DNA from: Pseudohongiella sp.
GTDB lineage: Bacteria; Pseudomonadota; Gammaproteobacteria; Pseudomonadales; Pseudohongiellaceae
Assembly: GCA_030696315.1 (NCBI GenBank)
Contig: JAUYSM010000105.1
Span: 1-64,000, forward strand
Direction of reading: 5' to 3'
Length of the DNA stretch: 64,000 nt
The notes under the pieces are model-generated. The model did no database searches. It saw only the letters and a program-made list of their open reading frames with translations, and was not told where the DNA came from. Made by a program: the position numbers and the translations under genes. Each line of letters starts with the position of its first letter. The first letter of the stretch is position 1. Shown piece after piece: positions 3,536 through 8,199 of the stretch.

Positions 3536-3931
3536 ATGTCGAAGCAGGTCAATGATATTAAAGAAAGTTTGCGTGAAAAACTTGATCCTCAAACTTATCG
3601 GATTGTGTGCGAGTGTGGCACCGAGCCTGCGTTTACCGGCAAGTATTGGGATTGTAAAACACCGGGCATCTATCACTGCGTGGTGTGTGAAAGTGCCTTG
3701 TTTGATTCAGAAACCAAATATGACTCAGGTTCGGGCTGGCCCAGCTATTACACGCCGGTCTCAGACGGCGCTTTAAAGGAGCGTATTGATAATGCCCACG
3801 GCATGATCAGAACCGAGGTGGTCTGCGCGCAATGTGAAGCTCATTTGGGCCATGTTTTTAATGACGGTCCTCCGCCAACCGGACTGCGTTACTGCATAAA
3901 TTCTGCGGCATTGGAGTTGAAACCAAGCTGA
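3536..3931 (+). CDS. msrB: Peptide-methionine (R)-S-oxide reductase MsrB
   Basis: Reduces methionine R-sulfoxide in proteins, with thioredoxin as reductant. The 131-residue protein has the structural zinc site Cys48/Cys51 and Cys97/Cys100, and the catalytic Cys120 in RYCINSAAL; the [10 protein letters not shown] and [18 protein letters not shown] signatures are intact. Length is normal for the zinc-containing MsrB class. The stop codon overlaps the start of the next gene by one base (TGATG), so the outer-membrane-like protein downstream is probably translated from the same transcript. Confidence 0.96.
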
Positions 3932-4734
3932 TGAAATGTGTGGGCGGGTCTGTCAAGGCGCTGATCCTGGTGGCGGCAAGTGTGTCATACAGTGCCGCTC
4001 TGCAGGCCCAGAGTGCGGTGGATACGGCTGCTGGTATCACTCAGAGTTCTACCATCGGCATGTATTACAGTCGGGGTCTTTATGGCCAGGATGCTGCCAC
4101 CAGGGTGCGCTATTTGCCCTATACGCATGAACTCTCTTTCAGTGGCTGGCGTTTGAAAGGCAGTATCCCCGTACTGGAGATTGATGGACCTGGCAATGTG
4201 CTGATTGATGTTGGAAACGTAGGTGGGCGCAGTGCGGCCACCGTCTCTGAACGGGGTGTGGGTGACGCCACAATCAGTGCGACTTATGAATGGCCCGCAT
4301 TGTCAGCCGGTTTGCCTTTTTTTGATGTCACTGTAGATTTGAAGCTGCCACTGGCAGATGAGCGCAAGGGGCTGGGCACAGGTCGGCCCGATTTAGGTAT
4401 TCAAGTGGACGCCTATTATGTGCTGGGTCAGGTCAATGTATTTGCTTCTGTGGGTTACCGATACCGCCATCGCTCCCCGGTATACGAGCAACTGAATGAC
4501 TCGGTAAATATTTCAGTGGGCGCGAGTCGCTCATTGTCAGAAAATGTTCAGGCCGGGCTGATTTATGATTACCGTGAGGCTGCGTCAGCTTTCAGCGGCG
4601 ATACACATGAACTCATACCCTATATTTCCTGGACGATTCAGACTAACTGGAGCCTGATGATGTACATGGTAGAGGGCTCAACGCAAGATAGCGCCGACAA
4701 AGCAATCGGGGTGCAGTTGACGCGTCGATGGTGA
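3931..4734 (+). CDS. Predicted outer-membrane beta-barrel protein, function unknown
   Basis: A 267-residue exported protein. The first 25 or so residues form a signal peptide ending near LQAQSA. The remainder is rich in alternating aromatic and small residues, contains GVGDATISATYEW and a DVTVDLKLPLADERKGLGTGRPDLG stretch of the type found in the phenol-degradation/'transporter' outer-membrane family (Phenol_MetA_deg-like), and ends in a C-terminal Trp as barrels recognised by BAM usually do. Substrate cannot be inferred. The start overlaps the msrB stop by one base. An inverted repeat containing its TGA stop follows. Confidence 0.7.
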   Translation: MKCVGGSVKALILVAASVSYSAALQAQSAVDTAAGITQSSTIGMYYSRGLYGQDAATRVRYLPYTHELSFSGWRLKGSIPVLEIDGPGNVLIDVGNVGGRSAATVSERGVGDATISATYEWPALSAGLPFFDVTVDLKLPLADERKGLGTGRPDLGIQVDAYYVLGQVNVFASVGYRYRHRSPVYEQLNDSVNISVGASRSLSENVQAGLIYDYREAASAFSGDTHELIPYISWTIQTNWSLMMYMVEGSTQDSADKAIGVQLTRRW

Positions 4735-4756
4735 CACCAGATTTGATCTGGTGTCA
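4732..4756. terminator. Bidirectional hairpin formed from two convergent stop codons
   Basis: A perfect 11-bp inverted repeat: TGACACCAGAT (4732-4742), loop TTG, ATCTGGTGTCA (4746-4756). The outermost three bases of each arm are the TGA stops of the plus-strand barrel gene and the minus-strand Gly-rich membrane protein. The strong short-loop stem suggests bidirectional termination or mRNA 3'-end protection, but neither side has a long T-run. Confidence 0.6.
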
Positions 4757-5617
4757 GATTCTCATCGGTTGCGGCCGTGCTGGCGCGATGGATGCGCGGT
4801 CTACAGCGGGCCGCATGCGCTGAAATGGCGGAAGTTCCGGGCGCTGCACACGCTCGGTATTCTGGCGAGGATCTGGCTGATTCGTTTCCGTCACGATCTC
4901 GGGTAACTCTTCTGCATTGCTGGCTGCCAGCGAGGGTTGTTGTGTCAGCTCAGGCTGCTGAATCTCGGGCAGGGAGGCTGCAGGTTCTGGTGCCAGAATG
5001 ACAGGTATCTGCACACTTATCTCCAGCCGTGGCGACTCAATGGGCAATTCCGTGGACACCCCATTTGATACCCCACTCGACGCCCCATTCGACACATCAG
5101 GCGTATTCACAAGCTCCAATAACTGACGCATATACAATGAAGGTACCGAACTATCTTCATCCAATATGCGCAGTGCATCGGGTTCGCCAGGGAAAACCAG
5201 TGATTCGTCAAGAAAGGGGTCTTGCGGTGGATTACGCTGAATTTCGATCAATGGCGCAATCTCTGCAGGTATTGAGGCCATTTCCTGCTCGCGAGTTAAC
5301 CACGGGGCAGGCCAGCCATCTTGGGATTCAATCGTTGTTGGATTTTCTTCCAGGTCTCTATCATCCGTGTCTGCTTCGCTAAAGAAGGGGGAGGGGCCTC
5401 CGGTGCCACCAAAACCACTGTCTCCGGGGACGCCGCTCTTTCCTGTGCCCCCCATGCCACTGCCTTGGTCTTCGCCACCGCCGCCATTGAGTACGCCACC
5501 ATTGATAAGAATGGTGCCGATGCTGTTGGTCGCCATCAGCAAACTGCACAGAAATAGCACCAAGGCCATCAGGATGGCGATTGGGTAACGTCGCAGTGCC
5601 AAAATAGCTCTAGGCAT
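4754..5617 (-). CDS. Gly-rich single-pass membrane protein, partner of the DUF6502 gene
   Basis: 287 residues from the ATG at 5617, chosen because it overlaps the upstream DUF6502 stop by 8 bp; an in-frame start further upstream (to 5716) would lie deep inside that gene. A hydrophobic segment at about 11-30 is followed by a Gly-rich stretch (NGGGGEDQGSGMGGTGK, then GFGGTGG, about 44-74) and a long acidic, Pro-rich, low-complexity region with a three-copy VSNG-type repeat. The C-terminus is basic and Pro-rich (RPAVDRASIAPARPQPMRI). From general knowledge, DUF6502 genes are often followed by a DUF5666 protein with a similar GGTG stretch; no DUF5666 beta domain can be recognised here. Function unknown. 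Confidence 0.65.
   Translation of the reverse strand: MPRAILALRRYPIAILMALVLFLCSLLMATNSIGTILINGGVLNGGGGEDQGSGMGGTGKSGVPGDSGFGGTGGPSPFFSEADTDDRDLEENPTTIESQDGWPAPWLTREQEMASIPAEIAPLIEIQRNPPQDPFLDESLVFPGEPDALRILDEDSSVPSLYMRQLLELVNTPDVSNGASSGVSNGVSTELPIESPRLEISVQIPVILAPEPAASLPEIQQPELTQQPSLAASNAEELPEIVTETNQPDPRQNTERVQRPELPPFQRMRPAVDRASIAPARPQPMRI
5058..5093. repeat. Three-copy 12-bp tandem repeat inside the Gly-rich protein gene
   Basis: Three adjacent 12-bp units, ACCCCATTTGAT, ACCCCACTCGAC and GCCCCATTCGAC, encode on the minus strand the four-residue repeat VSNG/ASSG/VSNG. The units have diverged, mostly at third positions, so the repeat is coding and not recent. Confidence 0.7.
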
Positions 5618-6527
5618 GATCTGATTCCTGGTCTGCACCGGTCTGGGTTGACGCATGGTCTGGGATTGACCGGGCTGACGTTTTTTCCTGCCAGTTATTG
5701 TAGTGGAAAACACCAAAATTCATACGATAAATTGCCTGATCATTTCCGTCGTCTGCTTGTTGCAACTGCAATGCTCGACGATTCATTTCAACAAGCGCAG
5801 TCATACCCACTTGGGCCGCCAGATTATGTAGTTCCTGTAATGATTCCGGGCTCAATTTATCGTAGTAAACACTGCGATCAAAAAAAGCCGGCTGTTTACC
5901 CATGATGTTATGGGTGCCAGCATTGAGATGATCCTGAATATTTTTGCCGAAAAAAAACAATTTTTCGTCAACGCCTTTGTCCGGGGTAAAAGCACCTGTG
6001 TTGAGCACCACCCTGTCTTGTTCGTCCTGATGCGCGATGCCAAGTCGAATCCACTCGTCCAGCAGCACTCGTGGCCTGATATCCTGACGGCAGACACGCT
6101 CGACGAGATCATCAAAGCTGACCTGATCAGGATTGCTTGATGGACTTCTGAGTGGTAGTGGCAAGGGAAGCCCGTCTGATCCTCTGAATTGATCCAGCCC
6201 GAGCCAGTAGGCAATACATTGCGCACCTACAGAAATTGATCGGGGGGCGGCTGTTGTAGCCGATTCTTCCGAGCGTAAACGTTTGACGTCTTTGCGATGA
6301 ACACCCGTCAGCAGCGTGATACGACTATCGGACTGGCGCCTTTCATCCATTGCATTTTCGCTGTCCGCAACTTCTACGTACATGGCTTTGAGCAGATTGA
6401 TCAAATACGGATATGACACTTGAAAGTGCAACATCATGCGCACGATGGGGCGCAGGATTTTACGCAGCGCAATAATCAGTGCGTCAGGTGCCTGGCCGGG
6501 GACATCGTTGTGATCGTGAGAATTCAT
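5610..6527 (-). CDS. DUF6502 family protein, possible DNA-binding regulator
   Basis: 305 residues from the ATG at 6527. An in-frame GTG at 6563 would add 12 residues but lies inside a perfect-armed palindrome, so the ATG is preferred. The N-terminal part matches the DUF6502 pattern I recall: LRKILRPIVRMMLHFQVSYPYLINLLKAMYVEVA, followed by RQSDSRITLLTGVHRKDVKRLR at about 64-85. The latter reads like a helix-turn-helix (SRITLLTGVHRKDVKRL). The rest is helical and without recognised motifs. It overlaps the next gene by 8 bp. Two matching palindromes lie just upstream, between it and the divergent hydrolase gene, consistent with autoregulation, which is inference. No experimental function is known to me. 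Confidence 0.75.
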   Translation of the reverse strand: MNSHDHNDVPGQAPDALIIALRKILRPIVRMMLHFQVSYPYLINLLKAMYVEVADSENAMDERRQSDSRITLLTGVHRKDVKRLRSEESATTAAPRSISVGAQCIAYWLGLDQFRGSDGLPLPLPLRSPSSNPDQVSFDDLVERVCRQDIRPRVLLDEWIRLGIAHQDEQDRVVLNTGAFTPDKGVDEKLFFFGKNIQDHLNAGTHNIMGKQPAFFDRSVYYDKLSPESLQELHNLAAQVGMTALVEMNRRALQLQQADDGNDQAIYRMNFGVFHYNNWQEKTSARSIPDHASTQTGADQESDHA

Positions 6528-6546
6528 GCCAAGAGTATAGCCAGAG

Positions 6547-6563
6547 GTGGGAATTAATCCCAC
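6547..6563. promoter_or_regulatory. Operator-like palindrome, left copy
   Basis: GTGGGAATTAATCCCAC: 6-bp perfect arms GTGGGA/TCCCAC around an ATTAA centre. It lies 20 bp before the ATG of the DUF6502 gene, next to a minus-strand TATACT that could be its -10 box, so a bound protein would block that promoter. Confidence 0.7.
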
Positions 6564-6598
6564 ATATATTTATGGGTGAATACACGCCTGCTATTGAC

Positions 6599-6615
6599 GT
6601 GGGAATAATTCCCAC
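6599..6615. promoter_or_regulatory. Operator-like palindrome, right copy
   Basis: GTGGGAATAATTCCCAC, a perfect 17-bp palindrome (8-bp arms, central A). Its centre (6607) is 52 bp from that of the left copy (6555), almost exactly five helical turns, so both sites face the same side of the DNA. It lies 38 bp upstream of the divergent hydrolase start. Confidence 0.75.
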
Positions 6616-6653
6616 CTACTATCCAAGCGTAGCAAGATCAATAAGGTAGAGAA

Positions 6654-7664
6654 ATGTTTGCGCGATTTAGGGATGAGAATGCAACGATTTCCACGGGACA
6701 TTCATTTGCCCCGGGTTTTCTGCCGTCTGATCATGTGCATGATCAGCAATCACCAAATCCGTCATCTGAGCAACTAAACAGTTCGACGCTGGATCGTGTG
6801 GACATTCTGGCGCTGGACGATGGGCGACAGTTAGCGTGGAGTGAGTACGGGCATCGTCATGGCTATCCTCTCATTTACCTGCACCGCGAAGCTGGGTCGC
6901 GCATCGAAGCAAAACTCCTGCATGAGTCCGCATGTGCTGCAGGTTTCAGGCTCATTGCAGTTGACCGGCCAGGCATAGGTTACTCAGATTTCAAATCTCT
7001 CAATGCTATCGACGAGCTGGTTGTGGACTATGAGCAGCTGATCCGGCATTTGGGCTTGAAGCATGTTGGCTTGGTCAGTTGGGGCGCAGGCAGCTTATTG
7101 GCGATGGAACTTGCCAGACATCTGAAAAGCAGGATCAGCATTGTAAATCTGATTTCACCTCAGCGTTCACACATGCACTTGCCCGGCATAAAAATAGTAC
7201 GCGGGTCCTTCAAATTGGGCATTCGATTGCTGTTGTCCGTCAGGTCGCGAAAAATGAAGGCTGGGGAGATCGAGTACTTTTTACGGTGGCGCGAGCAGTT
7301 GTGTTACGCGGACAGAAAGCAGCTTGATAACCCTTGGGTCAGTTCTCTGTTAATCGACGTTGCCCGGCAATCACTTCGACAGGGTACCGCAGGCGCGGCT
7401 CAAGACCTGGCGCTCAGTTTGTATCAAAACTCCATGGCTGTGGAGGGGATATCTATCCCTGTGCATGACTGGTCTGATAATTCAGAAGCAAGTGCGAATC
7501 AGGGGGTTGATAAAAGGCAGGTGAACAACGGACTTTTATTTTATCGCCATTACATCAAGCGGCAGGGCAAATTGTTTATCAACCGCTCTGCCGCCGATAT
7601 TTTTAACGTTGCGAGACAATCGCTTGCGCTCAGCCCTGTTGTCTGCGACCCACAACACCGCTGA
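6654..7664 (+). CDS. Alpha/beta-hydrolase fold protein, probably degenerate
   Basis: 336 residues. After an unusual N-terminal extension of about 45 residues comes an alpha/beta-hydrolase core: DDGRQLAWSEYGHRHGYPLIYLH, then DRPGIGYSD (the common DRPGYGxSD element), then a nucleophile elbow LVSWGAG. The first Gly of the GxSxG elbow is replaced by Leu, the oxyanion loop reads HREAGSR in place of HGxPGSR, and no GGHF-like catalytic His segment can be found near the C-terminus, which instead reads KLFINRSAADIFNV. Catalysis is therefore doubtful. It is divergent from the DUF6502 operon and shares its double-palindrome promoter. A purine-rich AGGTAGAG precedes the ATG. Its 3' end overlaps the DUF6316 gene by 35 bp. 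Confidence 0.7.
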   Translation: MFARFRDENATISTGHSFAPGFLPSDHVHDQQSPNPSSEQLNSSTLDRVDILALDDGRQLAWSEYGHRHGYPLIYLHREAGSRIEAKLLHESACAAGFRLIAVDRPGIGYSDFKSLNAIDELVVDYEQLIRHLGLKHVGLVSWGAGSLLAMELARHLKSRISIVNLISPQRSHMHLPGIKIVRGSFKLGIRLLLSVRSRKMKAGEIEYFLRWREQLCYADRKQLDNPWVSSLLIDVARQSLRQGTAGAAQDLALSLYQNSMAVEGISIPVHDWSDNSEASANQGVDKRQVNNGLLFYRHYIKRQGKLFINRSAADIFNVARQSLALSPVVCDPQHR

Positions 7665-7899
7665 TACGAAAGTGTGGTTTCACGCTGACCAGCGACTCTT
7701 GTTGAATCTGATGTAATTCTTGTACAAATTTGGTCAGCATCAGTTCCGCTTCGTCGCGGTATCTGAAAGGCCCTACATCTTTGCCTTCTCTGGTTTTGAA
7801 GTACCAGAGTCCTGTTCGACTGAACACCCTCTCGGAACGTTTGTAATCAGCATTTTTGTTATCTGTCAGGCGGTGCTGCTGCGAGTTGTAATCGAACAT
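7630..7899 (-). CDS. DUF6316 family protein
   Basis: A small cytosolic protein of 89 residues from the ATG at 7899, chosen for the GGAG eight bases before it; an in-frame ATG at 7938 would add 13 residues. The core RTGLWYFKTREGKDVGPFRYRDEAELMLTKFV matches the pattern of the DUF6316 family (WYF-TREG--GPF--EA). The family is found in Pseudomonas-like bacteria and has no known function. Its 3' end is antisense to the end of the hydrolase gene. Confidence 0.7.
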   Translation of the reverse strand: MFDYNSQQHRLTDNKNADYKRSERVFSRTGLWYFKTREGKDVGPFRYRDEAELMLTKFVQELHQIQQESLVSVKPHFRISGVVGRRQQG

Positions 7900-8199
7900 G
7901 GCAGACTCTCCGGTTTCAGGTGGACTTTTTGTTGTCATTTCTCATGTAGTAGACCATGCTTTTTGACATTAGTATCCCCCCAATTAATAAAAAACTGAGC
8001 TGGCGCAAACAGGCCTCAAATTGTGTGTCTGTAAATATTATTGAATAAAGGCGGTTGATATGGGACAATCGCGCTCTTCAAAATACCCCAATTTCCACTT
8101 AACTCATTGATATAGTTGGTAGAAATTATTTTAGCTGGCCTATAACAACCGTTGATACTGACCGTGCGCCAAGGGCATGACGGTCTGCGAGGAATTTTC

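What the first reader, a model, noticed from the sequence alone, without database searches (positions are those of the whole stretch)
6547..6615. Paired 17-bp operators in phase at the DUF6502 divergent promoter
Two near-identical palindromes (GTGGGA...TCCCAC) have centres 52 bp apart, five helical turns, between a DUF6502 gene with an HTH-like segment and a divergent hydrolase-like gene. Same-face, paired operators suggest cooperative or looped binding of a dimeric regulator, most simply the DUF6502 protein itself. No function for DUF6502 is known to me, so this may be an undescribed autoregulated switch controlling a small membrane-protein/hydrolase module.
Basis: partly seen in the sequence, partly recalled or inferred. 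Interest (0 to 1): 0.75.

Follow-up and report, generated by a model that had tools for sequence, protein, structure and literature searches.

The report
Self-controlling gene switch of DUF6502
Two matching DNA landing sites next to a bacterial gene of unknown function are very probably where that gene's own protein sits to control itself and its neighbours, and the same site-plus-gene pairing recurs in many distantly related bacteria, which gives this unstudied protein family a likely job.

Summary
The two palindromes are real, exact and the only two copies in the 3.96 Mb genome. They look like operators, and the evidence points to the DUF6502 protein as their binder. In 219 class-level genomes the 17-mer GTGGGAWWNWWTCCCAC occurs 8 times, each time 81-203 bp upstream of a DUF6502 match; two of the 8 are the window's. 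In the window's family the exact 17-mer is in 56 of 64 genomes with DUF6502 and 1 of 73 without. A form one base wider goes with more divergent DUF6502 genes.

Anatomy suggests repression. One operator fills the 17-bp spacer of a TTGACG/TACTAT promoter for the divergent gene; the other ends 7 bp before the -10 of an apparently leaderless DUF6502 promoter.

Helical phasing is weak in the family and absent outside it. The "hydrolase" lacks the nucleophile serine in 49 of 49 aligned homologues. The recurring core is DUF6502, a coupled exported protein with GxGGTG motifs and, often, a beta-barrel. A structural resemblance to HetR is suggestive only. No binding was measured.

The parts
6547..6563 (.). 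Proximal 17-bp operator, read on the - strand GTGGGATTAATTCCCAC, at about -36 to -20 of the inferred DUF6502 promoter
   Evidence: exact match; ends 7 bp before -10 TATACT; same geometry in 55 of 64 family loci
6599..6615 (.). Distal 17-bp operator GTGGGAATAATTCCCAC, filling the -35/-10 spacer of the divergent promoter
   Evidence: exact match; TTGAC flush upstream and a -10-like hexamer 0-3 nt after in 44 of 64 family loci
6534..6539 (-). -10-like element TATACT of the DUF6502 promoter, 6 nt before the ATG, implying a leaderless mRNA
   Evidence: sequence; -10 to start gap is 6-8 nt in the 55 loci that fit the geometry; inferred, no transcript data
6594..6599 (+). -35-like element TTGACG of the divergent promoter
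   Evidence: sequence
6617..6622 (+). -10-like element TACTAT of the divergent promoter, 17-bp spacer
   Evidence: sequence
5610..6527 (-). DUF6502 gene, proposed regulator, 305 aa
   Evidence: PF20112 E 3.1e-31
6255..6329 (-). codons 67-91 of DUF6502: predicted helix-turn-helix, holding invariant G75 and R78 and near-invariant S68 R69 L73 T74 H77 K79 L84
   Evidence: AlphaFold2 helices 67-74 and 78-91; conservation in 46 sequences
4754..5617 (-). Coupled downstream gene (its ATG lies 8 nt before the end of DUF6502): N-terminal hydrophobic segment, then GxGGTG motifs
   Evidence: overlap; motif in 61 of 62 family homologues against 4 of 366 other predicted ORFs
6654..7664 (+). Divergent alpha/beta-hydrolase-fold protein without the nucleophile serine
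   Evidence: Pfam PF00561; 0 of 49 aligned homologues have serine in that column: 43 G, 3 A, 3 D
3931..4734 (+). Convergent gene for a beta-barrel-like (PF13557) protein, recurrent third member of the module; here its start overlaps msrB by one base and no operator was found for it
   Evidence: PF13557 E 4.3e-6; ORF coordinates; only two operator hits in the window; its similarity cluster is in 27 of 66 clustered loci, 23 of them among the 62 outside the family

Best explanation
The two palindromes are operators for the DUF6502 protein, a helix-turn-helix repressor that acts as a dimer. Bound at 6547-6563 it covers the -35 region of its own promoter and limits its own synthesis together with that of the coupled GxGGTG exported protein. 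Bound at 6599-6615 it sits between -35 and -10 of the divergent promoter and keeps RNA polymerase off the gene for a probably non-catalytic hydrolase-fold protein. An unknown signal releases it. Shown by sequence: the sites, the promoter-like geometry, their conservation and their link to DUF6502. Inferred: that DUF6502 binds, that it is a dimer, that it represses, and that a signal exists.
For: Class level: 8 of 8 exact 17-mers in 219 genomes lie 81-203 bp upstream of a DUF6502 match; two of the eight are the window's own. Family level: exact 17-mer in 56 of 64 DUF6502 genomes and 1 of 73 others; the exception, G170, has one of its three sites at base 41 of a contig just before the divergent gene, where a DUF6502 gene could be missing from the assembly. 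Outside the family 39 of 61 DUF6502 upstream regions score 14 bits or more against 0.45% of 2440 control windows. The wider form TGGGA-N6-TCCCA is in 25 of 64 DUF6502 genomes against 7 of 155 others. All three recurrent architectures overlap a core promoter: -35 region (55 loci), spacer (44 loci), just after the -10 (10 loci). In G164, where the hydrolase gene lies apart from DUF6502, a site in the third arrangement is at its 5' end. Predicted HTH.
Against: No binding, expression or transcript data. Two family loci (L104, L130) have no site, and 22 of 61 outside loci fall under 14 bits, among them all three titled Thiobacillus. Of 45 N6 sites in the class search only 10 are within 250 bp upstream of a DUF6502 match, 9 more within 2.6 kb, 26 elsewhere. 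Single exact sites near other genes could be a wider regulon or chance. The weight matrix was trained on the family sites themselves, so 62 of 64 is partly circular. The co-occurrence tests ignore shared ancestry.
Confidence: 0.75

Rival explanations
1. DUF6502 binds the operators but activates transcription, at least at its own promoter, which lacks a -35 consensus.
For: The proximal promoter has a good -10, but with a 17-bp spacer TGGGAT stands where the -35 would be, as is common in activated promoters (general knowledge).
Against: The distal operator fills the spacer of a near-consensus promoter in 44 loci and follows the -10 directly in 10; both suit steric repression. The proximal site at about -36 to -20 is further downstream than usual activator sites (general knowledge).
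Confidence: 0.15
2. A different regulator binds the palindromes and DUF6502 is merely one of its targets.
For: No direct binding evidence exists.
Against: The exact sites are rare away from DUF6502, the association holds for loci titled alpha-, beta- and gammaproteobacterial, and outside the family no gene cluster other than DUF6502, its partner and the barrel is in more than 7 of 66 loci. Not every neighbour was scanned for DNA-binding domains.
Confidence: 0.08
3. The two sites act as a phased pair: two dimers bind cooperatively or loop the intervening DNA.
For: Spacing here is 52 bp; in the family the spacings show weak 10.5-bp periodicity (Rayleigh p 0.015, 32 genus-spacing pairs). 49 of 64 family loci have two or more sites.
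Against: p is 0.21 on unique values below 130 bp and 0.56 for 31 spacings outside the family; spacings run to 242 bp; each site is tied to its own promoter. The tests ignore shared ancestry, which inflates significance.
Confidence: 0.2
4. The palindromes act as RNA hairpins rather than DNA sites.
For: Each palindrome could form a 6-bp stem.
Against: By promoter geometry both lie upstream of the inferred start points; the six outer letters of each half are nearly fixed (frequency 0.96-0.99) rather than covarying. No RNA fold or Rfam search was run.
Confidence: 0.03

Closest known systems
HetR, heterocyst regulator of cyanobacteria
   Same: Foldseek ranks three HetR chains first for the window model (E 3.0e-3, 3.8e-3, 8.6e-2). 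HetR binds a 17-bp inverted repeat GAGGGGTCTAACCCCTC (PMC4192349, passages), the same length and with the same G1, G3-5, C13-15, C17. HetR is controlled by peptides from small proteins, one of them exported (PatX, HRGTGR; PMC12756182, passages); DUF6502 is coupled to exported proteins with GxGGTG motifs.
   Different: No sequence similarity detected. For a second, divergent DUF6502 model HetR was rank 4 at E 0.32. HetR requires GGGn5CCC (PMC4192349); this operator is GGGn7CCC. RG[ST]GR occurs in 0 of 62 family partner proteins and 0 of 38 in the outside partner cluster.
MerR-type regulators (operator in the promoter spacer; recalled)
   Same: Operator lies between -35 and -10.
   Different: MerR promoters have overlong 19-20 bp spacers (recalled); here the spacer is 17 bp, which suits simple blocking.
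MarR/IclR winged-helix autorepressors of divergent promoters (general type, recalled)
   Same: Palindromic operators in a divergent promoter; chains of these families appear among weak structure matches.
   Different: For the window protein Pfam finds only DUF6502 and NCBIfam nothing.

Membership tests
DUF6502 (PF20112) | Score above Pfam gathering cut-off of 27 bits | tested here: met
   108.7 bits, E 3.1e-31
HetR family | Detectable sequence homology to HetR | tested here: not met
   hhalign probability under 1%; HetR scored below the best shuffled and unrelated sequences; the HetR side had only two near-identical sequences, so the test is weak
HetR family | DBD-flap-hood fold | tested here: inconclusive
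   window model: HetR ranks 1-3, best E 3.0e-3, TM-score 0.31; second model: rank 4, E 0.32; no match reached E 0.001 in either
HetR family | Binding site GGGn5CCC | tested here: not met
   consensus here is GGGn7CCC; HetR requirement from PMC4192349
HetR family | Partner protein with RG(S/T)GR | tested here: not met
   0 of 62 and 0 of 38 partner proteins
MerR-type promoter control | 19-20 bp spacer (recalled) | tested here: not met
   17-bp spacer
Autoregulated local repressor | Operator overlapping its own core promoter, conserved with the gene | tested here: met
   promoters are inferred from sequence
Autoregulated local repressor | Direct binding and repression by the protein | not testable with these tools
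   needs EMSA or footprint and a reporter assay
Active alpha/beta-hydrolase (divergent gene) | Nucleophile serine in the elbow motif | tested here: not met
   0 of 49 aligned homologues; 4 of 49 have a serine one residue later

The most novel reading that the evidence does not exclude
DUF6502 is a proteobacterial counterpart of HetR in a peptide-signalling circuit: the coupled exported protein is cut to release a GxGGTG-containing peptide that re-enters cells and loosens DUF6502 from its operators, so that the operon reports on its own secreted product, between cells or on the state of the envelope.
Probability: 0.12. Interest if true: 0.92.

Novelty: new variant of a known kind. Interest (0 to 1): 0.64.

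Why it matters
It gives a probable function, a recognition sequence and a testable regulon to a widespread protein family without a described role (64 of 219 class-level genomes carry it; no paper in the searched library names it). It ties that family to exported proteins with GxGGTG motifs, usually with DUF5666 domains outside this family, and to a beta-barrel; I found no described job for the first two. A single binding experiment would open the whole module to study.

Tried and rejected
Phasing as a conserved design: rejected as general. HetR homology by sequence: not found with hhalign, HMM search and shuffled controls; a PDB sequence search with the DUF6502 profile gave only a chance-level ParA match (E 0.11). 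Searches for more HetR relatives in plasmids, phages and viral contigs gave none, so the HetR profile stayed at two sequences. PADLOC and NCBIfam gave nothing for DUF6502 or its window partner. Literature: 0 papers for DUF6502; 4 incidental for DUF5666 (listing only); 1 unrelated for GIGGTG (listing only); HetR + GTGGG returned 7 unrelated papers (listing only). Papers seen in passages only: PMC7377430, PMC7761841, PMC7476756, PMC4649674, PMC4192349, PMC12756182. RNA-hairpin reading: rejected on geometry and lack of covariation; Rfam and RNA folding were not run. PHROGs was not searched.

Selections before counts: of 80 loci, 50 were used as outside loci; 30 (L184-L210, L212, L236, L259) were left out because I judged them, by identity and matching contig lengths, to be family genomes already held. 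With 12 loci this makes 62 outside loci; L136 was dropped as too short. Of 50 hydrolase-like ORFs in the family, 47 longer than 250 aa were aligned, plus L173 and L175. The background ORFs include spurious ORFs and may include partner genes. Listings were cut off, so places beyond the cut were not read; genome counts come from the full tables. In some searches part of the genomes without a match was not listed.

Full report
Observation. The sequence holds GTGGGAATTAATCCCAC at 6547-6563 and GTGGGAATAATTCCCAC at 6599-6615, both exact matches to GTGGGAN5TCCCAC. They are the only exact copies in the 3,961,991-base genome, with 0 matches to the reversed control, and the only weight-matrix hits of 14 bits or more in the window. 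The left gene is DUF6502 (PF20112, E 3.1e-31) and the right gene has an alpha/beta-hydrolase fold. The nearest named records place the group in or near Pseudohongiella (the best match over part of the protein is 98% identical, L190).

Conservation inside the family. DUF6502 was found in 64 of 137 family genomes. All 64 loci were examined (63 fetched plus the window). With a weight matrix made from 106 of their own sites, 62 of 64 have a site of 14 bits or more upstream; L104 and L130 have none. The exact 17-mer GTGGGAWWNWWTCCCAC is in 57 of 137 genomes: 56 of 64 with DUF6502 and 1 of 73 without. The exception, G170, has three such sites, one of them at base 41 of a contig directly before the divergent gene, so its DUF6502 gene may simply be unassembled. 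The 8 DUF6502 genomes without the exact form are six of one genus, with TCCCTC (five) or TCCCGC (one) in place of TCCCAC, plus G017 with variant sites and G035 with none.

Conservation outside the family. In 219 class-level genomes, 64 carry DUF6502 and 7 carry the exact 17-mer. All 7 are DUF6502 genomes, and all 8 sites lie 81-203 bp upstream of a DUF6502 match (two of the 8 are the window's). In a set of 61 DUF6502 loci outside the family (62 less one too short), 39 score 14 bits or more in the 220 bp upstream, against 0.45% of 2440 control windows from the same loci. Those that score include loci titled Rhodospirillaceae, Nitrosomonas, Variovorax, Rhodoferax and Thiotrichaceae; all three titled Thiobacillus (L228, L232, L263) do not. 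DUF6502 proteins only 23-30% identical to the window's (L133, L135, L137, L139, L141, L142) lack the 17-mer, and in three of these six (L139, L141, L142) the start region shows a form one base wider, TGGGA-N6-TCCCA. In the class search this N6 form is in 25 of 64 DUF6502 genomes and 7 of 155 others; of its 45 sites 10 lie within 250 bp upstream of a DUF6502 match, 9 more within 2.6 kb and 26 elsewhere. That the operator width seems to go with the protein subgroup is what one expects if DUF6502 is itself the binder.

Promoter anatomy. At the distal site the sequence reads TTGACG, 17-bp spacer, TACTAT, so the operator fills the spacer of a near-consensus promoter for the divergent gene. TTGAC lies flush against the operator in 44 of 64 loci, all 44 with a -10-like hexamer within 3 nt. 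At the proximal site the operator is followed by 7 nt, TATACT, 6 nt and the ATG; 55 of 64 loci fit site, 6-8 nt, TATACT or TATAAT, 6-8 nt, start codon. That spacing implies a leaderless or near-leaderless mRNA; this is inferred. In a third group of 10 loci the distal operator instead follows TATACT by two bases. All three positions would block a core promoter, which is the argument for repression.

Phase. Spacings between neighbouring sites run from 30 to 242 bp in the family. A Rayleigh test at 10.5 bp gives p 0.015 on 32 genus-spacing pairs but 0.21 on unique values below 130 bp; outside the family it is 0.56 for 31 spacings. None of these tests corrects for shared ancestry. The five-turn spacing of the window is therefore not a conserved design feature; cooperation between sites remains possible.

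Targets. The operator follows genes. In G164 the hydrolase-like gene lies apart from DUF6502, and a site in the third arrangement (TATAATGC, then the operator) is at its 5' end. In five of six genomes of one genus and in G055 and G039 a further site lies upstream of the beta-barrel gene, and in all 7 the flank reads TTGAC towards that gene. Single exact sites also lie upstream of genes for exported-looking proteins in G002 and G013 (the same locus in G011 has the site but no such ORF in my list) and in G039, G029 and G062, and at the 5' end of a 716-aa protein gene in G025; these may be lineage-specific regulon members.

The module. The gene after DUF6502 overlaps its end by 8 nt and encodes a protein with an N-terminal hydrophobic segment and GxGGTG motifs. 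The motif (GxGG[TS]G) is in 61 of 62 family homologues, in 40 of 49 first downstream ORFs outside the family (50 loci, one without such an ORF), and in 4 of 366 other predicted ORFs. At two of the nine misses (L221, L231) another choice of ORF does show it. Outside the family 6 of 7 partners scanned carry DUF5666. The barrel cluster is in 27 of 66 clustered loci: 4 family representatives and 23 of 62 outside loci. The divergent hydrolase-fold protein was seen in the family only, and none of 49 aligned homologues has serine at the nucleophile position (43 G, 3 A, 3 D; 4 have serine one residue later), so it is probably not a hydrolase.

The protein. AlphaFold2 gives mean pLDDT 84.7, with helices 67-74 and 78-91 as the helix-turn-helix, and a second winged-helix-like part around 138-175 (my reading of its helices and strands). 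G75 and R78 are invariant and S68, R69, L73, T74, H77, K79 and L84 nearly so in 46 sequences. Foldseek ranks three HetR chains first, E 3.0e-3, 3.8e-3 and 8.6e-2, TM-score about 0.3. A model of a divergent member gives HetR only at rank 4, E 0.32. Sequence comparison finds nothing. HetR recognises a 17-bp inverted repeat, GAGGGGTCTAACCCCTC, and requires GGGn5CCC (PMC4192349, passages); the operator here is GGGn7CCC. HetR is proposed to be released from DNA by peptides binding its hood domain (PMC4649674, passages), and PatX is exported and processed to HRGTGR (PMC12756182, passages). None of the partner proteins holds RG[ST]GR (0 of 62 and 0 of 38). The parallel with an exported GxGGTG partner is suggestive but untested, so HetR membership is not claimed.

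Verdict. Most likely DUF6502 is a local autorepressor with a conserved palindromic operator, controlling an exported-protein module and, in this family, a divergent hydrolase-fold gene. No paper in the library searched names DUF6502. Binding, direction of control and signal are all still to be shown.

Noticed in passing
window 6654-7664: The hydrolase-fold protein has G in place of the nucleophile serine (VSWGAGS); 49 of 49 aligned homologues lack the serine, pointing to a non-catalytic role.
   Followed up: partly
window 6527-6539: The DUF6502 ATG starts 6 nt after a TATACT -10-like element, so its mRNA is probably leaderless; a 6-8 nt spacing is kept in 55 of 64 family loci.
   Followed up: yes
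L160, L161 and L169 (position about 3000): A single exact operator at one locus in three genomes of the window's genus; in L160 and L161 it precedes a gene for a small exported-looking protein (no Pfam match for L161's), which my ORF list lacks in L169.
   Followed up: partly
L162, L163, L170 (position about 3000): A single exact operator lies about 25-40 bp before the likeliest start of another exported-protein gene; the L162 protein has no Pfam match.
   Followed up: partly
L243, L257, L260 upstream of DUF6502: Three operator-like sites in a row with spacings of 33-34 and 27-28 bp, a multi-site array unlike the window's pair.
   Followed up: no
L220 (1062), L222 (1037), L230 (952), L248 (966), relative to the DUF6502 match: Here the gene after DUF6502 lacks the GxGGTG motif in my ORF choice, and a strong operator lies between DUF6502 and that gene.
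   Followed up: no
L187: A contig titled Klebsiella pneumoniae MAG has the same length as the family contig G050:C12 (49331) and is probably mislabelled.
   Followed up: no
window 3536-4734: msrB and the beta-barrel gene overlap by one base, so in this genome the barrel is probably expressed with msrB rather than from an operator-bearing promoter.
   Followed up: no
window 7630-7938: A DUF6316 gene convergent with the hydrolase-fold gene; a similar ORF cluster was seen in 21 loci.
   Followed up: no
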